NCBI GenBank assembly: GCA_945910005.1
Contig: OX246743.1
Location: 37,937,461-38,001,460 of the forward strand
From: Isoperla grammatica
Taxonomy: Eukaryota > Arthropoda > Insecta > Plecoptera > Perlodidae
Length of the DNA stretch: 64,000 bases
Direction of reading: 5' to 3'
The notes below the pieces were generated by a model. The model was not told where the DNA came from and did not search any database. It saw nothing but the letters and a program-made list of their open reading frames with translations. The position numbers and the translations under genes are program-made. Below, piece after piece: positions 1-63,340 of the stretch (its first letter is position 1; every line of letters begins with the position of its first letter).

Positions 1-1080
1 AATAAGAATAAAATTCTGAAACATTTATCATACACGCATACCAAACCATATTATCGTGGTGTTTGTATTTTGTCGTTGCGGTGCCTACTTCTTGAACTCT
101 GTCTAAAACACTGTATTTTACATGGTTTTAATACTTCTACCTATTATCCCTTTGTCCAGTACTTAACATTTAGGTACACTTGGGATTGACTTGAGGTTAC
201 ACACTATATCGTAGACTTCGAACACCGCAGTGCCCGAAGTCTACGATAGAGTGCGTATAAACTGAGGCATAGACGAGACTATAATTTTGGATGTGTGGAT
301 TCGATTAATTCACATGCAGACCATCTGGACTGAGAAATTTTGCCATATTTTCCTTTAGTCAAAGAACATTTTTTAAAGTTGAGTTCTTTTCCATCTCTCA
401 AAATTCCACATTAATCTTGATTCATCAGATTAGAAGGTCAATCTTTACAGAAGGTGCATTCATAAATAATTTTGAACTTCAAACATTTTCACCATGTGCA
501 GTAGCACTGCATGCGCGCTATTTAGTATCATGCAGGCGCGTGCAGGTGCCCTTGTGACCCTGTTGGAACGGGCGGGATATCTTAGAACAAGTGTCCCTTC
601 TCTTGAAAATTTAATTTTGCTAAAAAATAGCTTGTACGGAATAATTAATCGATGCTGAACTTGGTTACTGTTTATTTGTGATTTAGTGTATGTAGAATAG
701 TCCAGGTTCAATATGTGTAGATACTCCAGTGGTGTAGAATAGTTCTTTGACTCTTTATTCATTGTGGTTCAATGTTTTCAGTGTTGCAATGGTTACAGAA
801 TAGTTCTGTTGAATATGCATTCATTGGATTGTAGGAGTGCAGCTTTTTCGTGCTTTTTAGTTGCAAAACTACAAGTGCAGTTTTTTACTGTGTTTATTAA
901 AGCTCATTCGGGTGCTGTATGTTCAAGTGCTTATTGTGTACAGCTTTCAAGTGCATTGTCCTAGTGTGCTTAAACCATCTTCTGCTACCCCGGTACTTGT
1001 ATGTTCCAGTGCAGGTGTTTAAGTGCAGGTAGGTGTTCAAGTGCAGGTGCTCTAGTGCGTTAAGAAGGTCCTGCAGTTAC
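1..1080. other. Intron flank, no exon seen
   Basis: This stretch lies downstream (minus-strand sense) of gene B exon 3 and should be intron. It contains a hairpin near 204-251 and, from about 840 to 1060, a loose series of degenerate copies of an AAGTGCAGGT-like motif. No open frame here has splice sites or recognisable protein content, and the catalytic-domain exons expected for gene B are not in it. Confidence 0.5.
204..251. repeat. Short inverted repeat (hairpin)
   Basis: Two arms of about 17 bases (204-220 and 235-251), identical except for one position, flank a 14-base spacer. No family relative is seen in the window. It may be the core of a small foldback element or simply a local hairpin. 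Confidence 0.55.
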
Positions 1081-1773
1081 CCCTGTATCCTGCCCCGTCC
1101 TGCGGACTCCCCGCCGATCCTGCAGACGGCCTCAGGACGATGTCTGGTCGTGGTGTACTCGAACCGGGCCGCGATCCTCCACCACCACCGAAATGTGGCC
1201 GATTCTGGTTGAAATCAACCGGCCGGGTCGGGAAGTTCGGCTGGTTCTGGTTGTAGTCAGGTTTGTGTACTTGTGTGACCGTCCCTACGCCTACCGGTTT
1301 GATCACAGTCACTGGCCGAAGTGGTTTACCAGGGTTCACGTTTGATATTACAATCGTCGTCCCGGGTTTGTGTTGACCATTGTAATTCGGTTTGTTTTGA
1401 TTGTAATCTGGTTTATTTTGATTGAAATCAGTTGGTTTGTTTTGATTGAAGTCTTGTGGTTTGTTTTGATTAAAGTCTTGTGGTTTGTTTTGATTAAAGT
1501 CTGGTTTGTTTTGATTGAAGTCGGGTTTGTTTTGATCGAAGTCGGGTCTGTTGACAGTATGTCCGGGCCGTACGAAAGTGAACGTGGGTTTTTTGTTCGG
1601 GTCGTTTTGTGTTGGCCTGAGGAAGGTGTATTTGACGGGCTTCGAAGTTCCCCATGTTTGTGGTGATGGTTTGGCGCCGTTGCCCGGGTAGGTGTAGAAC
1701 AGTGGCGGACGACTCGCCGCGGCGTCGTGGTTGCCGCCCGAGGCTAGGTGGTGGGTTTCAATGTACTCCAGAG
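1081..1773 (-). CDS. Gene B exon 3: Pro/Asn/Gln-rich repeat linker of a secreted clip-type serine protease (homologue)
   Basis: Internal exon of 693 bases (231 codons), phase 1 at both ends. It starts after a CTCACAG acceptor (AG at 1774-1775) and ends before a GTAACT donor at 1080. It joins the knot exon at 7615-7797 in frame. The protein starts LEYIETHH and then carries an array of short units such as DFNQNKP, DFNQNKPQ and DYNQNKP at about 1375-1550. A Val/Pro-rich stretch, a GGGGGSRPGS linker and a Ser/Pro-rich end follow. No enzyme domain is present. Such low-complexity extracellular spacers often separate a clip domain from a protease domain in arthropod proteases, so the catalytic domain is expected left of base 1 (inference). 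Base composition is clearly more GC-rich than the surroundings. The 5' edge of the exon, with its acceptor, has been tandemly copied upstream (1780-2445). Confidence 0.8.
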
Positions 1774-2445
1774 CTGTGAGTGGGCGAGTATAGGGGTGGC
1801 TGGTTAGTAACACTTACACATGGTATAGTTTAGTACAGTTAGTGCATATATTCTAGGCAGTGGCGTAACAGTGGCGGGTGGTTGCCGCCCGAGGCTAGGT
1901 GGTGGGTTTCAATGTACTCCAGAGCTGTGAGTGGGCGAGTATAGGGGTGGCTGGTTAGTAACACTTACACATGGTGTGGTTTCGAACACAGTTAGTGCAT
2001 ATATTCTAGGCAGTGGCATAACAGTGGCGGGTGGTTGCCGCCCGAGGCTAGATGCATGGTGGGTTTCAATGTACTCCAGAGCTGTGAGTGGGCGAGTATA
2101 GGGGTGGCTGGTTAGTAACACTTGCACATGGTATGGTTTAGTACACTGTTAGTGCATATATTCTAGGCAGTGGCGGGTGGTTGCCGCCCGAGGCTAGATG
2201 CATGGTGGGTTTCAATGTACTCCAGAGCTGTGAGTGGGCGAGTATAGGGGTGACTGGTTAGTAACACGTACACATGGTATGGTTTAGATCACAGTTAGTG
2301 CATATATTCTAGGCAGTGGCGGGTGGTTGCCGCCCGAGGCTAGGTGGTGGGTTTCAATGTACTCCAGAGCTGTGAGTGGGCGAGTATAGGGGTGGCTGGT
2401 TAGTAACACTTACACATGGTATGGTTTAATACTGTTAGTGCATAT
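1706..2445 (-). repeat. Tandem array (about 150 bp x 5) of an exon 5' edge and its splice acceptor
   Basis: Five copies of a unit containing the CTCACAG acceptor and the first roughly 45-50 coding bases of gene B exon 3. The shared landmark TGTACTCCAGAG starts at 1762 (genuine exon), 1913, 2070, 2216 and 2358, giving spacings of 151, 157, 146 and 142 bases. The four extra copies lie in the intron just upstream of the true acceptor in the minus-strand sense. Because the unit lengths are not multiples of three, the copies do not extend the reading frame. Splicing to the nearest decoy reads about 27 residues and then a stop. Confidence 0.88.
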
Positions 2446-3880
2446 ATCCAAGGTTCTTCCATTCACTCCTATACTTCCATACTTTTTATTTTAATTATAA
2501 CATAAGGCGCCTTACGTAAGAAGGCGGCAGATTATATCAATGTGGGTAACACCCAAGATTCTAATTCGGGAGGTCGTTGCCGGTTTGATACGGTCACCAG
2601 CAATTCTGACTGAAGGTTTTTTTCGGAGGTTTTTTCTCATTCATAAGGAAAATGCTGCTTTTAAAGGAAACTGAACTCCTGCTGAAGGATATACTGAATA
2701 GTATGTTTCTCTCTTGGTATTGTTAATTGCATGTAATAAATTAATCATGTTCATAATATACATAATTGTGTGCATGAAATTAATAATATCGTTAATTTAA
2801 TTATATTTTAAAAGTTATAGATAATTATTTACAATTAATGATCAATATATTTTGTGTTTTATTTTGTAGATACTTAAATTACTAGCAGGGAGTATTTTCA
2901 CTTTAAAAAAAATGTTAGCATCATAATGTATCGGCATTGTCCTTGAAATACTGCCAAGTGGTGCCAATGTAGGTATTAGGGCCAGTACTTGGGTAAAATA
3001 CCCTCCCTATCTCCGCGGAATGTCTAGATCTAGGTCTAGTTTAATATCGTGCAGATAAGGCGGGTTTTCTTATCGCGTCCAAGCTGGTTTAGGTCAATCT
3101 CAATCGTGTCGTGATGGCATTTGTTCATTAAGTAGTAAACGTATATGGAGAAATTCAGGCACAGCTTGTATGGTTGGTTACGCTAATTTAAAAGAATATT
3201 ACGAATTCCGAACTAGAAATCTTGTAACAGATTCAAATTCCTGAGCTGTTCTCAATGTTGGCGTTTTAAATGAAACGTGTACAAGATGTGGTGGTAGGTG
3301 TTAAGACCACAGCAAGTTGTTAAGAAAAACTATTGGAAATGGGTTTCAAAATGATGCATACTCAGATTTTATTAGATGTATAGATTATCAGTATAGCATG
3401 AATTAAAATATGTGAAACTAAAAAAAATATTTATAAGAATTGAGAAACAATTAGCATATTTGTGTTCATGCGCAATACTTGAGCAATGAAATGATAAATT
3501 TTAATTTATAATTTTGATTTAATATGATTATTATAGTACTTCAAGTAGATGAATATCGCAAAAATTACAGTTTGTTCGATTTTCGAGATGTAAAGGGTTA
3601 ACAAAAACTATTTTCCTGATATTTTTTAATAATGTTTTTTTGTTGGTTAAAATTTATGTTTTTACTAAACATTTCTGTATATATGAAAGAACAAAACATG
3701 AAATAAATGGCAATTTTAAAATCCAAGATTATCAACTGAACCAAATACCTGTTACAAACAAATACCGCGTTCGGGTAGTCTAGTCCACATGTTAAAATTA
3801 CTTAAATTCGCAACAATATTTACCTCCAGCAGATGAGCAATTATGTGTTATCGCCAGCGTGGTGACGCCGCTAGACCATA
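2446..3880. other. Gene B intron 2 segment
   Basis: AT-rich intronic sequence. A degenerate SINE-1 fragment lies at 2545-2640; nothing else here can be assigned to a gene or known element. Confidence 0.5.
2545..2640 (+). mobile_element. SINE-1 fragment (tRNA-derived), degenerate
   Basis: It matches the middle of the better copy at 9052-9311: CTAATTCGGGAGGTCG, a mutated B box (CCGGTTTGATAC) and the following CTGACTGAAGG plus T-rich stretch. The A-box half is missing or unrecognisable. Confidence 0.6.
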
Positions 3881-7284: not shown

Positions 7285-7611
7285 TAATAACGACTTAATA
7301 TTAAGTACTCATAATTAAATACTAATATATAAATAAAAATTACTGATAACCAAGTAATATATCCTACAGTAAGTGCTGATAATGGAGTAGGGCCTGTAAA
7401 TAACTCAGTGCTAGTAAGTAATAACTAAGTACTAATTACTAAGTACTATGTCCTGAAGTGCTTAACTAAGTAATTAACTACTAATTGCCAAGTGTTAATA
7501 AGGGAAGTACCAATAACAAAGTAAAGTAATAACTCAGTACTAATAAGTAATAACTAAGTACTACTAACTAAGTACTAATAACTAAGTACTAATAACTAAG
7601 TGCTAATGACT
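7285..7611 (+). repeat. Degenerate AAGTACTAATAACT tandem repeat
   Basis: The interval is filled with variants of AAGTACTAATAACT and AGTAATAACT, with a self-complementary AGTACT core. It runs right up to the donor site of gene B exon 2 (GT at 7613-7614). The intron 2 donor is therefore embedded in the edge of a microsatellite-like tract. Confidence 0.75.
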
Positions 7612-7614
7612 CAC

Positions 7615-7797
7615 TGGCGTTCTCCAGCGCGCCCACTTGGTGGTTGTCATCTATCTCTTCATCGTTCTTGTCGACGCAGCAGCTCCATATGAGACCCCCG
7701 GAGCAGAGGTCTAGAGGTCGACCCCCGGCTAGTACGCAAGAGATGCTCAGGCCGCAGTCGAACCTCGCCCCGCTATGCCAGCACGTCTGCGGTATCA
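7615..7797 (-). CDS. Gene B exon 2: clip-like six-cysteine disulfide-knot exon
   Basis: Internal exon of exactly 61 codons, phase 1 at both ends, between a TCTCCTCCAG acceptor (AG at 7798-7799) and a GTGAGT donor. Codons at 7676-7783 encode six Cys spaced C-x8-C-x5-C-x10-C-x7-CC. They include CVLAGGRPLDLCSGG and an LIWSCCV end. This arrangement, with a Gly-Gly before the fourth Cys and a terminal Cys pair, is that of clip or clip-like knot domains at the N-terminus of arthropod chymotrypsin-fold proteases (family knowledge). It joins exon 1 (15066-15795) through a split codon and exon 3 (1081-1773) in the same way. The following residues (KNDEEIDDNHQ) are acidic linker. I cannot assign an orthologue. 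The short length (36 residues from first to last Cys) is at the low end for clip domains. Confidence 0.85.
7676..7783 (-). other. Six-Cys clip-like knot domain
   Basis: Protein domain inside gene B exon 2. In clip domains the six Cys pair 1-5, 2-4 and 3-6; that pairing is assumed here from the family, not shown by the sequence. Confidence 0.7.
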
Positions 7798-7944
7798 CTG
7801 GAGGAGAAAACACTTGTTAAGTAAAATCGGAGACTTCATTTTAAGTGCACGAGATAATTCTCAAAGGAGACTAATTTTACCAGAGAACTTGCCCGTGTAA
7901 CACTTACACGCGCGATAGGTCTTCAGTTCTCTAATCAAGCGTAA

Positions 7945-8395
7945 ATTTCAATAGAGAACCCTGGACCTTGTCTACGTTGACATATCAAATACCCGTGACG
8001 TGCAAGCGACCGCTATTGCAGTGAGTGTTGAATCATGGCAACGCTGCAGCGCACAGCATCAATAGAGAACCCTGGACCTTGCCACGTTGCCATATCAAAT
8101 ACCCGTGACGTGCAAGCGACCGCTATTGCAGTGGGTGTTGAATCATGGCAACACTGCAGCGCACAGCATCAATAGAGAACCCTGGACCTTGCCACGTTGC
8201 CATATCAAATACCCGCGACGTGCGAGCGACCGCTACTGCAGTGAGTGTTGAATCATGGCAACACTGCAGCGCACAGCATCAATAGAGAACCCTGGACCTT
8301 GCCACGTTGCCATATCAAATACCCGCGACGTGCGAGCGACCGCTACTGCAGTAAGTGTTGGATCATGGCAACGCCGCAGTGCACAGGGGTTTCAA
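7945..8395 (+). repeat. 110-bp tandem repeat, four copies, CpG-rich
   Basis: Near-identical units with landmarks ATCATGGCAAC, ATAGAGAACCCTGGACCTTG and CGTGACGTGCAAGCGACCGC. The landmark AATCATGGCA lies at 8031, 8141, 8251 and 8361 (G at its start in the last), so the period is exactly 110. The array begins about 150 bp upstream of gene B exon 2 in the minus sense and is much richer in CpG than its surroundings. Confidence 0.9.
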
Positions 8396-28858: not shown

Positions 28859-29261
28859 TGTAACATATATGGAAGGCGGATAGGGTTGGATCTAGGAAGC
28901 TTGGTAAAAAGAAGAAGTGGTTTTAGAAAAGAAAGATTGTTGGGTATTGTTGAGAGATGTTACTATGGTTGAGAAAAATAACAAGATGGAAAAGCAGTAT
29001 GCTGTATGGTAAAATGAGATAAAAACAAGATAAAAAAACTTAGTGTTGTTTAAAAAGGTGACAGTGAAGGACTGGTTTTGTGTGTGTGACGCCCACGACG
29101 GCTGCTTCGGGACGTCGAAACAGGCCTGTTTCGAAGTGCGACGGTTGTTCGTGAGGTAAACATCAAGCCATCAAACGAGTAAGTAATGTAATATCGACTG
29201 AGCTAGTTATATAAAATAATAATTTGTCTACTTGAGATACCGGGCTAGACAGTATTTGACA
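28859..29261 (+). mobile_element. 5' LTR
   Basis: 403-bp repeat starting TGTAACATATATGG and ending AGTATTTGACA (TG...CA ends). It appears identical by eye to 31065-31467. It contains CGAAACAGGCCTGTTTCG, an internal palindrome. Confidence 0.93.
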
Positions 29262-31064: not shown

Positions 31065-31467
31065 TGTAACATATATGGAAGGCGGATAGGGTTGGATCTA
31101 GGAAGCTTGGTAAAAAGAAGAAGTGGTTTTAGAAAAGAAAGATTGTTGGGTATTGTTGAGAGATGTTACTATGGTTGAGAAAAATAACAAGATGGAAAAG
31201 CAGTATGCTGTATGGTAAAATGAGATAAAAACAAGATAAAAAAACTTAGTGTTGTTTAAAAAGGTGACAGTGAAGGACTGGTTTTGTGTGTGTGACGCCC
31301 ACGACGGCTGCTTCGGGACGTCGAAACAGGCCTGTTTCGAAGTGCGACGGTTGTTCGTGAGGTAAACATCAAGCCATCAAACGAGTAAGTAATGTAATAT
31401 CGACTGAGCTAGTTATATAAAATAATAATTTGTCTACTTGAGATACCGGGCTAGACAGTATTTGACA
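31065..31467 (+). mobile_element. 3' LTR
   Basis: 403 bp, same length and apparently the same sequence as 28859-29261. Followed by the target-site copy GTAA. Confidence 0.93.
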
Positions 31468-55500: not shown

Positions 55501-57689
55501 GTTATGCCTACGCACTTTATGAGTTTTTATCTATATTACTGGTCTAAGGTTTTTATTGGCTATCTTGTCTTAAGCGGTACGTTAAATTAAAATCATAGAT
55601 TTTAAGTAAGTAGCATTATTTCATGTGATTGCCTTCCAAAGAAGAGTTGTCAGATGCTAACATTTTAACAGACATAGTATAAGATACTGATTGAGACATT
55701 TATAAGAATAAATAATGTGATACATATTCATTATTGTATTGAGAACAGTGTATTATGTGTCATTCATTAAACACTACAGTTTGGTTATGAATATACTGTG
55801 AATTTCGTATTAATCCATTCTCAATGATTTTTAATACAATTGGATTTGGAGATACTAAGATCATATTTTCTAATAGATTCACATTATGCTTTGCAGATTT
55901 GACACTGTAAAATATATATTTAACATAACAATAAATACTGACAGTTTGAATAATTCTAAACGTTCAGTTTTTATAGCATCCTGGGGAACATAATCACACA
56001 GGTAGGACACGTTGATAAAGATATAAAATCATATAATTTAGCTCGAAAAGGGTAAAATAACATATATACCTGGAAATATTTCTGGATTTTTCGTGGAACA
56101 AATATATATGCAAATAATTGTCGGCTAAAATGTATTGTTCATCCGAAGCAAAATATTTGTTGATTTTCTGGGTATCTTCTTTCGACAATATGATGCATTT
56201 TCCATGTATCTGCTGTGATTCACTTTTATAGTTGTCGTATTACGTTGTTAAACGGAACAGTATGTAAGTACAGTCAAGACTGATAAACGTGGTACAATGT
56301 CCAAACAACACATATTAATTTTATGGTGCATATCCGAGCTGGTACTGATCACTTCCACAGTTAAACACGTCATTATGCAGGCTCACACGTTTGTTTCAAG
56401 AATGAGAACAGAGTAGCACAAAAAAAAGATCGTTTTATTAAAAATATGCTATCTTTCTATCTATGATTGAATGTTTTTGTATAAATAGAAACACGTACAG
56501 AATGGTGTAGATATATTTCGTTTAAATTATGAATACATGGAAGGGTAGATAAATATATTTCTGCGTAAGTTAGCAAGGTCCAGCCTTGTAAGCGAAATAA
56601 AGTAACTCTTTTGGAATCTCCACAGCTGCAGTTGCAAAGCCTGAAATATCATCCGGACAGTTGAGCGTCCCACTTGTGAATAAGTTATTGCGTATACAGC
56701 GCTGTCATACCATTTTCCAACCCCAACATTTATACGGGCCTATGAAGGCAGTGTTAATACCGACATTTAGAGTAGAGGGATTTTTTAGCATTGGGGTCGA
56801 ACAGGGTGCTTTACATGCAGATGAGGAAGGGGTGTTTGACTCTCAATTTGATGTTGGCGTTACGGTTGTGTGTCACCCTACCCTGCGAATACCCTATTGC
56901 TGTAGGTTATAATTGCTTTAAAATTCTCAAAAGACTAAACCGAAATATTCTCTGTCCTAATATAAATATGTACGGTTTCAGATGTTCTTATTTCAATGTG
57001 AAATGTCAGTTGCAACAGCACATAAATAAGAACATTTGAAAAACTGCAATATCAATTGGAACATAGAAACATCATACCACAAAGAATATAGTGACAATTT
57101 TACGATATTTTAAAGCATTTTAAGTTTTAACATAAAAAAATGGAGGGTAGGTTCACTTATTCTCTTACTGCGTACATATTTACATCACGAAGTGTATTGT
57201 GCAGTGAAGGAATACATATATCTCCTCATAATGCCAATATTCTTTGAGAGTCAGCCAATAATACATTTCTCATCTACAAGTTATTTACGTTTTTGGAGTT
57301 GGGTAATAACTCAATAATGTACCCCCAGAATGTCCCGCATAACAGTATCTTCATGCGCAGTTATGAATGTTGGCATTAGAGGGACAAAATGGTCGTGATT
57401 TACATTGCCAGAATGGATGAAGAAGCCTTCAGGTCAGATATTGTTTATTACAGATTCAGTCATTGCTTTAAATTGCGTGATGCCTTTCGTGGATATAATG
57501 CATATCCATTAATTATGCGTTTTTTCTTTGTAATTAAGTTATCAAACTGTTTCCTATCAGTACGATACTTATGCCTAGATTTAACAGTTCATAAATTGAC
57601 AATTAAGGAAAGATTCGAGAATCCGAATAAGTGCATTATTGGAGACCATTACGTAGAGACTTTGACGTAGCCCCTTCCATTATTCACTG
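52543..57689. other. Intergenic AT-rich spacer, 3' of gene C
   Basis: Over 5 kb without a recognised gene. A tRNA-like T arm (CTAGGATTCGAACCTAG) lies at 52624-52640 within a minus-strand pseudo-tRNA of about 70 bases that lacks a pairing acceptor stem. Nothing else stands out. Confidence 0.4.
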
Positions 57690-57695
57690 TTTATT
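57690..57695 (-). terminator. Candidate poly(A) signal of gene C
   Basis: AATAAA on the minus strand (in the context CAATAAACAG), about 70 bases past the end of the 75-bp array. If used, the gene C 3' UTR contains the whole 4.8-kb array. Confidence 0.4.
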
Positions 57696-57763
57696 GTTTA
57701 TGGTGTCCATAGCAATGTGTGCCTTGCATTGGAAATGGGATAAAGAAAACAGACAACACTGAA

Positions 57764-60700
57764 TTGATCCACATCGTAGTGTCTGGTATCTGGTGGTAGA
57801 TGCCAGGCTGGTGGTTCTATTCCCTGTCTACGTAGGCCTTGATCCACATCGTAGTGTCTGGTATCTGGTGGTAGATGCCAGGCCGGTGGTTCTATTCCCT
57901 GTCTACGTAGGCCTTGATCCACATCGTAGTGTCTGGTATCTGGTGGTAGATGCCAGGCCGGTGGTTCTATTCCCTGTCTACGTAGGCCTTGATCCACATC
58001 GTAGTGTCTGGTATCTGGTGGTAGATGCCAGGCTGGTGGTTCTATTCCCTGTCTACGTAGGCCTTGATCCACATCGTAGTGTCTGGTATCTGGTGGTAGA
58101 TGCCAGGCTGGTGGTTCTATTCCCTGTCTACGTAGGCCTTGATCCACATCGTAGTGTCTGGTATCTGGTGGTAGATGCCAGGCCGGTGGTTCTATTCCCT
58201 GTCTACGTAGGCCTTGATCCACATCGTAGTGTCTGGTATCTGGTGGTAGATGCCAGGCTGGTGGTTCTATTCCCTGTCTACGTAGGCCTTGATCCACATC
58301 GTAGTGTCTGGTATCTGGTGGTAGATGCCAGGCTGGTGGTTCTATTCCCTGTCTACGTAGGCCTTGATCCACATCGTAGTGTCTGGTATCTGGTGGTAGA
58401 TGCCAGGCTGGTGGTGCTATTCCCTGTCTACGTAGGCCTTGATCCACATCGTAGTGTCTGGTATCTGGTGGTAGATGCCAGGCTGGTGGTTCTATTCCCT
58501 GTCTACGTAGGCCTTGATCCACATCGTAGTGTCTGGTATCTGGTGGTAGATGCCAGGCTGGTGGTTCTATTCCCTGTCTACGTAGGCCTTGATCCACATC
58601 GTAGTGTCTGGTGGTAGATGTCAGGCTGGTGGTTCTATTCCCTGTCTACGTAGGCCTTGATCCACATCGTAGTGTCTGGTATCTGCTGGTAGATGCCAGG
58701 CTGGTGGTTCTATTCCCTGTCTACGTAGGCCTTGATCCACATCGTAGTGTCAGGTATCTGGTGGTAGATGCCAGGCTGGTGGTTCTATTCCCTGTCTACG
58801 TAGGCCTTGATCCACATCGTAGTGTCTGGTATCTGGTGGTAGATGCCAGGCTGGTGGTTCTATTCCCTGTCTACGTAGGCCTTGATCCACATCGTAGTGT
58901 CTGGTATCTGGTGGTAGATGCCAGGCCGGTGGTTCTATTCCCTGTCTACGTAGGCCTTGATCCACATCGTAGTGTCTGGTATCTGGTGGTAGATGCCAGG
59001 CTGGTGGTTCTATTCCCTGTCTACGTAGGCCTTGATCCACATCGTAGTGTCTGGTATCTGGTGGTAGATGCCAGGCTGGTGGTTCTATTCCCTGTCTACG
59101 TAGGCCTTGATCCACATCGTAGTGTCTGGTATCTGGTGGTAGATGCCAGGCTGGTGGTGCTATTCCCTGTCTACGTAGGCCTTGATCCACATCGTAGTGT
59201 CTGGTATCTGGTGGTAGATGCCAGGCTGGTGGTTCTATTCCCTGTCTACGTAGGCCTTGATCCACATCGTAGTGTCTGGTATCTGGTGGTAGATGCCAGG
59301 CTGGTGGTTCTATTCCCTGTCTACGTAGGCCTTGATCCACATCGTAGTGTCTGGTGGTAGATGTCAGGCTGGTGGTTCTATTCCCTGTCTACGTAGGCCT
59401 TGATCCACATCGTAGTGTCTGGTATCTGCTGGTAGATGCCAGGCTGGTGGTTCTATTCCCTGTCTACGTAGGCCTTGATCCACATCGTAGTGTCAGGTAT
59501 CTGGTGGTAGATGCCAGGCTGGTGGTTCTATTCCCTGTCTACGTAGGCCTTGATCCACATCGTAGTGTCAGGTATCTGGTGGTAGATGCCAGGCTGGTGG
59601 TTCTATTCCCTGTCTACGTAGGCCTTGATCCACATCGTAGTGTCTGGTATCTGGTGGTAGATGCCAGGCTGGTGGTTCTATTCCCTGTCTACGTAGGCCT
59701 TGATCCACATCGTAGTGTCTGGTATCTGGTGGTAGATGCCAGGCTGGTGGTTCTATTCCCTGTCTACGTAGGCCTTGATCCACATCGTAGTGTCTGGTAT
59801 CTGGTGGTAGATGCCAGGCCGGTGGTTCTATTCCCTGTCTACGTAGGCCTTGATCCACATCGTAGTGTCTGGTATCTGGTGGTAGATGCCAGGCTGGTGG
59901 TTCTATTCCCTGTCTACGTAGGCCTTGATCCACATCGTAGTGTCTGGTATCTGGTGGTAGATGCCAGGCTGGTGGTTCTATTCCCTGTCTACTTAGGCCT
60001 TGATCCACATCGTAGTGTCTGGTATCTGGTGGTAGATGCCAGGCTGGTGGTGCTATTCCCTGTCTACGTAGGCCTTGATCCACATCGTAGTGTCTGGTAT
60101 CTGGTGGTAGATGCCAGGCTGGTGGTTCTATTCCCTGTCTACGTAGGCCTTGATCCACATCGTAGTGTCTGGTATCTGGTGGTAGATGCCAGGCTGGTGG
60201 TTCTATTCCCTGTCTACGTAGGCCTTGATCCACATCGTAGTGTCTGGTGGTAGATGTCAGGCTGGTGGTTCTATTCCCTGTCTACGTAGGCCTTGATCCA
60301 CATCGTAGTGTCTGGTATCTGCTGGTAGATGCCAGGCTGGTGGTTCTATTCCCTGTCTACGTAGGCCTTGATCCACATCGTAGTGTCAGGTATCTGGTGG
60401 TAGATGCCAGGCTGGTGGTTCTATTCCCTGTCTACGTAGGCCTTGATCCACATCGTAGTGTCAGGTATCTGGTGGTAGATGCCAGGCTGGTGGTTCTATT
60501 CCCTGTCTACGTAGGCCTTGATCCACATCGTAGTGTCTGGTATCTGGTGGTAGATGCCAGGCAGGTGGTTCTATTCCCTGTCTACGTAGGCCTTGATCCA
60601 CATCGTAGTGTCTGGTATCTGGTGGTAGATGCCAGGCTGGTGGTTCTATTCCCTGTCTACGTAGGCCTTGATCCACATCGTAGTGTCTGGTATCTGGTGG

Positions 60701-62573
60701 TAGATGCCAGGCTGGTGGTTCTATTCCCTGTCTACGTAGGCCTTGATCCACATCGTAGTGTCTGGTATCTGGTGGTAGATGCCAGGCTGGTGGTTCTATT
60801 CCCTGTCTACGTAGGCCTTGATCCACATCGTAGTGTCTGGTATCTGGTGGTAGATGCCAGGCTAATGGTTCTATTCCCTGTCTACGTAGGCCTTGATCCA
60901 CATCGTAGTGTCTGGTATCTGGTGGTAGATGCCAGGTTGGTGGTTCTATTCCCTTTCCACGTAGGCCTTGATCCACATCGTAGTGTCTGGTATCTAGTGG
61001 TAGATAGGCAGGTGGTTCTATTCCCTGTCTACGTAGGCCTTGATCCACATCGTAGTGTCTGGTATCTGGTGGTAGATGCCAGGCTGGTGGTTCTATTCCC
61101 TGTCTACGTAGGCCTTGATCCACATCGTAGTGTCTGGTATCTGGTGGTAGATGCCAGGCTGGTGGTTCTATTCCCTGTCTACGTAGGCCTTGATCCACAT
61201 CGTAGTGTCTGGTATCTGGTGGTAGATGCCAGGCTGGTGGTTCTATTCCCTGTCTACGTAGGCCTTGATCCACATCGTAGTGTCTGGTATCTGGTGGTAG
61301 ATGCCAGGCTGGTGGTTCTATTCCCTGTCTACGTAGGCCTTGATCCACATCGTAGTGTCTGGTATCTGGTGGTAGATGCCAGGCTGGTGGTTCTATTCCC
61401 TGTCTACGTAGGCCTTGATCCACATCGTAGTGTCTGGTATCTGGTGGTAGATGCCAGGCTGGTGGTTCTATTCCCTGTCTACGTAGGCCTTGATCCACAT
61501 CGTAGTGTCTGATATCTGGTGGTAGATGCCAGGCTGGTGGTTCTATTCCCTGTCTACGTAGGCCTTGATCCACATCGTAGTGTCTGGTATCTGGTGGTAG
61601 ATGCCAGGCTGGTGGTTCTATTCCCTGTCTACGTAGGCCTTGATCCACATCGTAGTGTCTGGTGGTAGATGCCAGGCTGGTGGTTCTATTCCCTGTCTAC
61701 GTAGGCCTTGATCCACATCGTAGTGTCTGGTATCTGGTGGTAGATGCCAGGCTGGTGGTTCTATTCCCTGTCTACGTAGGCCTTGATCCACATCGTAGTG
61801 TCTGGTATCTGGTGGTAGATGCCAGGCTGGTGGTTCTATTCCCTGTCTACGTAGGACTTGATCCACATCGTAGTGTCTGGTATCTGGTGTACATATATCA
61901 GGCTGGTGGTTCTATTCCCTGTCTACGTAGGCCTTGATCCACATCGTAGTGTCAGGTATCTGGTGGTAGATGCCAGGCTGGTGGTTCTATTCCCTGTCTA
62001 CGTAGGCCTTGATCCACATCGTAGTGTCAGGTATCTGGTGGTAGATGCCAGGCTGGTGGTTCTATTCCCTGTCTACGTAGGCCTTGATCCACATCGTAGT
62101 GTCTGGTATCTGGTGGTAGATGCCAGGCTGGTGGTTCTATTCCCTGTCTACGTAGGCCTTGATCCACATCGTAGTGTCTGGTGTCTGGTGGTAGATACCA
62201 GGCTGTTGGTTCTATTCCCTGTCTACGTAGGCCTTGATCCACATCGTAGTGTCTGGTATCTGGTGGTAGATGCCAGGCTGGTGGTTCTATTCCCTGTCTA
62301 CGTAGGCCTTGATCCACATCGTAGTGTCTGGTATCTGGTGGTAGATGCCAGGCTGGTGGTTCTATTCCCTGTCTACGTAGGCCTTGATCCACATCGTAGT
62401 GTCTGGTATCTGTTGGTGGATGTCAGGCTGGTGGTTCTATTCCCTGTCTACGTAGGCCTTGATCCACATCGTAGTGTCTGGTATCTGGTGGTAGATGCCA
62501 GGCTGGTGGTTCTATTCCCTGTCTACGTAGGCCTTGATCCACATCGTAGTGTCAGGTATCTGGTGGTAGATGC
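57764..62573 (-). repeat. 75-bp minisatellite (about 64 copies) derived from a serine-protease terminal exon
   Basis: Head-to-tail units of exactly 75 bases, nearly identical. Read on the minus strand each unit is the last 22 codons of gene C (QPGIYHQIPDTTMWIKAYVD, then RE), the stop TAG and AACCAC. The right-most unit is the functional end of the gene C exon. Variant units of 68 bases (loss of TATCTGG) occur near 58607, 59350, 60243 and 61658, and one 3-base-shorter unit near 61003. Shared variant orders show 743- and 893-base higher-order blocks. Long open frames on both strands across the array are artefacts of a repeat length divisible by three. Confidence 0.97.
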
Positions 62574-62673
62574 CAGGTTGATGATCGACTGCGCAACCGA
62601 AGCCGGCGCTTGTGATGCCTGCTAGGGTCCATCGGCCGTCCTGGTACACGATAAGGGGACCGCCACTGTCGCC
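62512..62673 (-). CDS. Gene C terminal exon: C-terminus of a chymotrypsin-fold serine protease
   Basis: 54 codons including stop, after a TTTCTCACCAG acceptor (AG at 62674-62675), phase 0. It encodes GDSGGPLIVYQDGRW, then LAGITSAGFGCAVD, QPGIYHQI and MWIKAYVDRE-stop. GDSGGP contains catalytic Ser195 and the oxyanion hole. TSAGFGC and QPGIY correspond to the 214-220 and 225-228 walls of the S1 pocket, with Gly216 and Gly226 kept, so the pocket should be open. Residue 189, which sets specificity, and the catalytic His and Asp are in exons beyond the right edge. Unusual points: position 215 is Ala instead of the usual Trp, and the Cys after GGPL (C201) is absent, so the C136-C201 bridge is missing. 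The helix at the end is the standard family terminus. The final 22 codons and stop are the source of the adjacent 75-bp array. Confidence 0.95.
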   Translation of the reverse strand, partial: GDSGGPLIVYQDGRWTLAGITSAGFGCAVDHQPGIYHQIPDTTMWIKAYVDRE

Positions 62674-63340
62674 CTGGTGAGAAACAACACACACTGTAGT
62701 TATCGACAATAAACAGAGACTGCGTGCATTCTGGTGGCAACAAAATGAACTAATACAGAGGTGTTGGTTGACTGACACTAACATGGCGAAGCCAATGGTA
62801 GAGCTAAAGTGCTTTATCTTGACAGTTTTAGTGATCAAATGACAGAAACAAAGTGAATTTAGAATTTGAGGTACTTAGTTCAAAGATGGAGATTGGAATC
62901 GTTTGGTAAAGAAAAGTAAAACAAATTTCATATTTAATAGATTTTCGAGAATTAAATAAAATTGTTTTTACTCTGTAAAAAGCTTTAGTTATACAAATAT
63001 CGGCTTTGAATTCGTTTTTCTATGACGAAAACAAAGGGAGTTACGAGTGTAGTAATGTTAACAAAGTATCTTCTACTCTTACAATGGAATTTGAAGGTGT
63101 ATCGGCTTGAGTTCTCTCACATTTAAATCATAATTAATTACAGATGTATTTATAAAAGTCACCTCGCATATTCAGTTATAAATAACATCCTACTGGAAGT
63201 ATTGCAACAGAAAGTATATTATACGGAACGGAAGGAAGAGTAAGGGGTTGGTAAATTTGGAAAACATTTACGACCTCGAATATTATCAGTGTCTTCAACT
63301 CTATATTGAACAAACTTTAGTAAAACAATGAGAATCCTGT
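62674..63340. other. Gene C last intron
   Basis: AT-rich intron sequence upstream (minus sense) of the terminal exon; no second protease exon is visible before the window ends. Confidence 0.5.

What the first reader, a model, noticed from the sequence alone, without database searches (positions are those of the whole stretch)
57764..62573. A protease stop codon and last 22 codons amplified about 64 times
The 75-bp unit is not random satellite DNA. It is the 3' coding edge of gene C (QPGIYHQI to the stop) plus six bases. The unit length equals 25 codons, so the array is invisible to frame changes, yet each copy keeps the TAG in the coding frame. The functional exon is the right-most copy. I know of no described array built from the terminal codons of an S1 protease.
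Basis: partly seen in the sequence, partly recalled or inferred. Interest (0 to 1): 0.85.

Follow-up and report, generated by a model that had tools for sequence, protein, structure and literature searches.

The report
Exon-end minisatellite beside a protease gene
The last 22 codons and stop of an insect serine-protease gene stand about 64 times in a row just downstream of the gene; the array is real, but similar arrays sit at the edges of other exons in this genome, and it is most likely a neutral by-product of repeat growth in GC-rich DNA.

Summary
The array is real: 64.6 head-to-tail copies of a 75-bp unit at 57764-62577, 97% alike, with no match elsewhere in the 874-Mb assembly. The unit is the 3' end of the last exon of a conserved insect S1 protease gene (22 codons, TAG, 6 bases). 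The intact exon is the right-most, gene-side copy. An AATAAA lies 69 bases beyond the array and none inside it, so the array probably sits in the 3' UTR (inferred).

The special meaning given to it is not supported. Copies show no coding constraint, five of 64 spacings shift the frame, and keeping TAG is what chance allows. It is not unique: the same gene has arrays at two more exons (127 and 152 bp), another S1 gene has an array of its own terminal codons plus stop (139 bp), and LDL-receptor-type exons carry them. At 16 other S1 loci, 12 of 26 arrays overlap an S1 exon against 3.5 expected at random, but about 9 expected when GC is matched, so GC accounts for most of the excess.

Best reading: minisatellites born in the GC-rich exons of an AT-rich genome, with one intact exon left at one end. 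The recurrence is the interesting part.

The parts
62512..62673 (-). Last coding exon of gene C (S1 protease; begins GDSGGPL, ends YVDRE), the intact gene-side copy; stop TAG at 62509-62511
   Evidence: Pfam Trypsin E 1.5e-8; PDB matches; alignment to P0004 residues 321-371
57764..62577 (-). Tandem array, 64.6 copies of a 75-bp unit = last 22 codons + TAG + AACCAC; its right-most copy is the end of the functional exon
   Evidence: TRF, unit dissection, whole-genome searches
57690..57695 (-). AATAAA in gene sense, 69 bases beyond the array: possible poly(A) signal, which would place the array in the 3' UTR
   Evidence: motif scan of 57000-62700: AATAAA only at 57695 and 57449, none in the array; its use is inferred
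57164..57763 (.). Flank on the far side of the array, one match in the assembly (itself); no dispersed repeat seen at the array edge
   Evidence: own-genome search, which skips very common words

Best explanation
It is a minisatellite born from a short tandem duplication across the 3' edge of the last, GC-rich exon of an S1 protease gene. The duplication kept one complete exon at the gene end; every further copy fell downstream of the stop codon, where it cost nothing, and the array then grew by slippage and by unequal exchange of blocks of 10-12 units. Shown: sequence origin, single-locus occurrence, homogeneity, block patterns, lack of coding constraint in the copies, and similar anatomy at other exons. 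Inferred: that the array is transcribed as 3' UTR, that birth was by slippage or unequal exchange at short similar stretches (CATCAACC in the exon resembles CACCAGCC at the unit junction), and that it has no function.
For: The unit matches only here, next to a flank with no other match. The 58 units of 75 bp differ from consensus by 0.76%, and shared variants recur at lags 10, 12 and 22 units. Of 16 distinct coding substitutions 4 are synonymous, against 21.6% expected. The same gene carries a 152-bp and a 127-bp array on the 3' side of two other exons. Units of the 21 arrays at least 95% alike have mean GC 0.556 against 0.383 for the collapsed loci. At 16 S1 loci 12 of 26 arrays overlap an S1 exon, 3.54 expected at random but 9.02 with GC matched, P 0.11; two other ways of collapsing arrays give 9 vs 8.02 and 12 vs 9.85. 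Of 14 orthologs read, 11 end 6-10 residues after the WI tryptophan, as here with 8.
Against: The far end of the array stops inside the unit (ATGTGGATCAA then TTCAG), so the pre-array flank and the founding junction cannot be read. A small excess over GC remains in each version of the test, none significant, and GC and exon are confounded in these loci. One well-preserved array is AT-rich and has no S1 exon hit (L035 5269-6975, GC 0.35, 96%), against a strict GC rule. Exons with arrays are not significantly richer in GC than exons without (0.574 vs 0.545, P 0.23). Three orthologs (P0019, P0028, P0026) run 14-21 residues past the tryptophan. No reads, transcripts or population data were available.
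Confidence: 0.8

Rival explanations
1. The array is kept by selection, as a long repeated 3' UTR that sets transcript stability or as a reserve of terminal codons.
For: Likely 3' UTR position between stop and AATAAA; TAG kept in 64 of 64 segments.
Against: 19 distinct substitutions over 75 positions would hit the three TAG bases 0.76 times on average (my arithmetic), so keeping TAG is uninformative. The synonymous share, 4 of 16, is near the 21.6% expected. Frame-shifting 68-bp units persist, and one 68-bp type occurs three times. Periods of the S1-exon arrays are divisible by three in 3 of 16; among all arrays at least 90% alike it is 12 of 31.
Confidence: 0.07
2. An exon-specific copying process, for instance repair of breaks at transcribed or open exon edges, seeds arrays at exon boundaries beyond what GC content predicts.
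For: 12 of 26 arrays at 16 S1 loci overlap an S1 exon against 3.54 by random placement, P 0.0005. 14 of 53 exon pieces have an array on or within 60 bp. Two arrays without an S1 hit also look exonic: L027 5102-6001 (by eye) and L042 4876-5092 (LDLa hit at C6:21194831).
Against: GC-matched expectation 9.02, P 0.11, and 8 of 13 vs 6.16, P 0.18, for arrays at least 95% alike; two other collapsings give P 0.40 and 0.20 for all arrays. Arrays less than 95% alike show no significant excess (4 of 13 vs 2.06, P 0.14), nor do gene C's two upstream pieces alone (2 of 4 vs 0.88, P 0.21). Some loci are paralogs sharing arrays. Loci were hand-picked from one hit list.
Confidence: 0.2
3. Assembly artefact: one or a few copies expanded by mis-assembly.
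For: Reads are not available here; tandem arrays are known trouble spots (recalled).
Against: Copies carry distinct variants in ordered blocks; the array lies inside a 48-Mb contig, and 4.8 kb is within the span of long reads (recalled; the read type of this assembly is unknown). Similar arrays recur at other loci.
Confidence: 0.04
4. The gene captured a pre-existing 75-bp satellite as its 3' end.
For: None found.
Against: S1 homology runs through PGIYHQIPDTTMWIKAYV in solved and insect relatives, so the coding sequence is older; the unit matched nowhere else.
Confidence: 0.01

Closest known systems
GC-rich minisatellites / VNTRs in genes (human catalogue, PMC8096271; passages read)
   Same: Kilobase-scale tandem array in or beside a gene; that paper reports VNTRs enriched, relative to other tandem repeats, in UTRs, coding exons and CpG islands.
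   Different: Here the unit is itself an exon edge and one exon copy stays functional; copy-number variation was not tested.
[quoted passage not shown] passages read; the original not seen)
   Same: A unique segment becomes a tandem unit, later grown by slippage, conversion or unequal exchange.
   Different: The junction here shows only an imperfect short similarity, found by eye, and the far edge is cut, so the model fits but is not proven.
CEL last-exon VNTR in humans (search listing and abstract starts only)
   Same: Tandem repeat in the last exon of an enzyme gene.
   Different: The CEL repeat is part of the protein (recalled); here only the gene-side copy can be translated as the protease's end.

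Membership tests
Minisatellite / VNTR | Head-to-tail array of a unit of roughly 10-100 bp at one locus, 0.5-20 kb long (definition recalled) | tested here: met
   75 bp x 64.6, 4.8 kb, one locus
Minisatellite / VNTR | Copy number varies between individuals | not testable with these tools
   one assembly only
Satellite DNA family | Same unit in arrays at several loci, often heterochromatic (recalled) | tested here: not met
   65 of 65 matches at this locus
Transposon-derived tandem repeat | Unit or flank related to a dispersed element | tested here: not met
   unit matches one locus, left flank one match; the search skips very common words
Tandemly duplicated / mutually exclusive exons | Each copy is a whole exon with acceptor and donor sites (recalled) | tested here: not met
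   unit holds only the exon's last 66 coding bases and stop, no splice acceptor of that exon (read by eye)
S1 protease gene (peptidase family S1) | GDSGGP motif and homologous C-terminal segment | tested here: met

The most novel reading that the evidence does not exclude
This insect lineage has a process that turns exon edges into tandem arrays more often than base composition explains, at splice junctions and at stop codons alike, and purifying selection leaves the arrays hanging off one side of an intact exon. Introns and 3' UTRs then grow by copying coding sequence.
Probability: 0.2. Interest if true: 0.7.

Novelty: new member of a known kind. Interest (0 to 1): 0.42.

Why it matters
As a single array it is a minisatellite with an easily read origin. 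As a class, exon-edge arrays would give oriented starting points for repeat birth: the unique exon part marks the ancestral copy, the exon edge marks the phase, and coding constraint on one copy alone shows which one is spared. A genome with many of them would make it possible to test directly how minisatellites start and whether they prefer GC-rich DNA. They may also mislead gene predictors, because several of the arrays hold partial exons with intact-looking splice sites.

Tried and rejected
Protein search with a minus-strand array ORF found nothing at E <= 0.001 among 469 candidates, so I take the long open frames through the array (up to 423 aa) as a by-product of a unit length divisible by three. 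A first substitution count was wrong because 68-bp units were read out of register; it was redone on the 58 units of 75 bp, leaving out the six of other length. The claim that exon arrays always straddle one exon edge was weakened on re-check: with arrays collapsed to their first unit, 15 of 16 run past one end of the exon hit and one is flush, none internal, 4.13 expected internal; collapsed to the last unit, 1 of 13 is internal (4.16 expected); with the leftover part copy kept, 3 of 15 are internal (2.61 expected), one of them this very array, which by eye is one-sided. I therefore do not lean on the P of 0.004. Near-integer copy numbers as a sign of clean duplication: 17 of 28 arrays, but several arrays are cut by the ends of fetched pieces, so not relied on. 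A third gene family was wanted; the P450 and kinase searches did not complete. A stick-insect centromere paper was read in passages (PMC11691646: 12 of 18 places shown); nothing there bore on exon-edge arrays, and the species of this assembly was not established. Paper searches in whose listed rows (titles and abstract starts) I saw no report of exon-edge arrays; each lists only the best rows. A C. elegans paper linking intronic minisatellites to splicing (PMC4039745) was seen in listings only.

Full report
What is there. The array runs from 57764 to 62577, period 75, 64.6 copies, 97% matches. Read on the minus strand, the unit is the last 22 codons of an S1 protease exon, TAG, and AACCAC. Of 64 spacings, 58 are 75 bp, four 68, one 76 and one 72; GAATAG is present in 64 of 64 segments. 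The 58 units of 75 bp differ from their consensus by 0.76% on average. Shared variants recur at lags of 10, 12 and 22 units (5 of 41, 6 of 38 and 6 of 30 informative pairs), a sign of block duplication.

The gene. The exon 62512-62673(-) carries GDSGGP and matches Pfam Trypsin (E 1.5e-8) and 340 distinct PDB sequences, of which 60 were listed, enteropeptidase first. The window's assembly is held (874 Mb, 603 contigs; window = C13:37937461-38001460). Searching it with the Bacillus rossius relative P0007 gave further exons upstream on the same strand. Against P0004 the gene shows six coding pieces in order, 57-90% identical; a first exon was not looked for. A hand-joined query gave 2645 relatives, 120 listed, across insects and crustaceans, best P0004 (unnamed) at 77% and Bacillus rossius and Schistocerca at 74%. 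I infer an insect near the polyneopteran orders; the species was not established. Of 14 relatives whose sequences I read, 11 end 6-10 residues after the tryptophan of the WI motif (8 here), and P0019, P0028 and P0026 run 14-21 residues. The TAG is in a usual place.

Position in the transcript. In gene sense, AATAAA occurs only at 57695 and 57449 between 62700 and 57000, none in the array. The nearer one begins 69 bases beyond the array. I infer that the array lies in the 3' UTR; no transcript was seen.

Uniqueness of the unit. A 401-bp array query gave 19 matches and a 75-bp query 65, all in this array. The 600 bases beyond the array match only themselves. So no older satellite and no transposon was seen at the edge, within the limits of a search that skips very common words.

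No coding constraint on the copies. Nineteen distinct substitutions occur in the 58 units of 75 bp: 4 synonymous, 12 non-synonymous, 3 in the six bases after the stop. Chance predicts 21.6% synonymous among coding changes. With 19 changes over 75 positions, 0.76 would fall in TAG, so finding none says little. Five spacings shift the frame.

The same thing elsewhere. The first protease search already showed regularly spaced partial hits. In gene C itself a 152-bp array (5.9 copies, 99%) at C13:38003447-38004340 repeats an exon's 3' part with its donor site. Arrays of mainly 127 bp, from C13:38007169 to 38008639 in two adjoining fetched pieces, repeat the end of the AAHC exon with a GTACGA donor (donor judged by eye). 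At C9:1370104-1371024 a 151-bp unit holds an acceptor and the GDSGGP region; a 162-bp array at C9:1372601-1373500 holds LCLGVDQGGKDTCQ, which I take by eye for the exon before it. LDL-receptor class A exons show it too: 113 bp x7.8 at C13:16675641-16676526 and 113 bp x3.0 at C12:45778083-45778419, each unit with the exon's 3' part and a GTAAG donor, and a 90-bp array in L042 that overlaps an LDLa hit. The two further 5-kb stretches of LDLa genes that I fetched had no array of 50 bp or longer (L056, L057).

How unusual is it. I fetched 20 stretches: three of gene C and 17 at other S1 hits, picked by hand from the 100 rows. Leaving out gene C and L027, whose repeats I had seen before picking, 16 loci remain. 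With every array cut to one unit, 12 of 26 arrays overlap an S1 exon; random placement gives 3.54 (P 0.0005). For arrays at least 95% alike it is 8 of 13 against 1.51; for the rest 4 of 13 against 2.06, P 0.14. Gene C's two upstream pieces alone give 2 of 4 against 0.88, P 0.21. In ten random 5-kb stretches there were 5 arrays of period 50 or more, one of them at least 95% alike. Placed on sequence of equal GC, 9.02 of 26 and 6.16 of 13 are expected, P 0.11 and 0.18. Cutting to the first unit breaks the phase when the copy number is not whole, so I repeated the test with the last unit kept (9 of 26; 3.39 at random, 8.02 GC-matched, P 0.40) and with the leftover part kept (12 of 26; 4.20 and 9.85, P 0.20). 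The excess over random placement holds in each, and GC takes up most of it in each. Units of the 21 arrays at least 95% alike have mean GC 0.556, collapsed loci 0.383. Against a strict rule: one 134-bp array at 96% has GC 0.35 and no exon hit (L035), and exons with arrays are not significantly richer in GC than those without (14 of 53 pieces with, L027 left out; 0.574 vs 0.545, P 0.23). GC and exon are confounded here, so a smaller exon effect is not excluded. Some loci are paralogs that share arrays (L035, L036, L043; L041 with L043).

Anatomy. By eye, this array, the 152-bp array, the C16, C9 (151 bp) and both 113-bp arrays hang off one side of an otherwise intact exon. By script the result depends on how arrays are collapsed: 0 of 16, 1 of 13 or 3 of 15 are internal to the exon hit, against 4.13, 4.16 and 2.61 expected. 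Among the 16, eight were classed 3' and eight 5' of the exon, L036 changing side between versions. Selection against arrays inside exons is thus plausible, not shown. Periods divisible by three: 3 of 16 S1-exon arrays, 12 of 31 arrays at least 90% alike.

Mechanism. [quoted passage not shown] Here the exon has CATCAACC and the unit junction CACCAGCC, a possible imperfect founding repeat; the far edge is cut inside the unit, so this remains inference. A human survey reports VNTRs enriched, relative to other tandem repeats, in UTRs, coding exons and CpG islands (PMC8096271, passages), which agrees with a GC-driven view.

Verdict. It is most likely a minisatellite born at the end of a GC-rich exon, one of a series found in this genome. 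The recurrence deserves a whole-genome count, which I could not run.

Noticed in passing
window 1727-2447: 146-bp array (about 4.9 copies, 94%) overlapping the 5' side, in gene sense, of ORF 1052-1813(-): possibly another exon-edge array in this window.
   Followed up: partly
window 1389-1552: 21-bp repeat, 7.4 copies, in frame inside the same ORF (DFNQNKP repeats).
   Followed up: no
window 7595-7870 (-) and 7948-8386: An S1-protease-relative hit (P0077 residues 51-91) ends 78 bases from a 110-bp x4 array.
   Followed up: no
window 28892-29170 (-) and 31098-31376 (-): Two identical 92-aa open frames (WLDVYLTNNRRTSK...) 2.2 kb apart, probably a recent duplication.
   Followed up: no
L034 3948-5394 (C1), L040 4272-8001 (C1): Long S1-exon arrays: 145 bp x10 and 124 bp x30, the latter running off the fetched stretch.
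   Followed up: partly
L035 5269-6975: 134-bp array, 12.7 copies, 96% alike but AT-rich (GC 0.35) and without an S1 hit: a counter-example to a strict GC rule.
   Followed up: no
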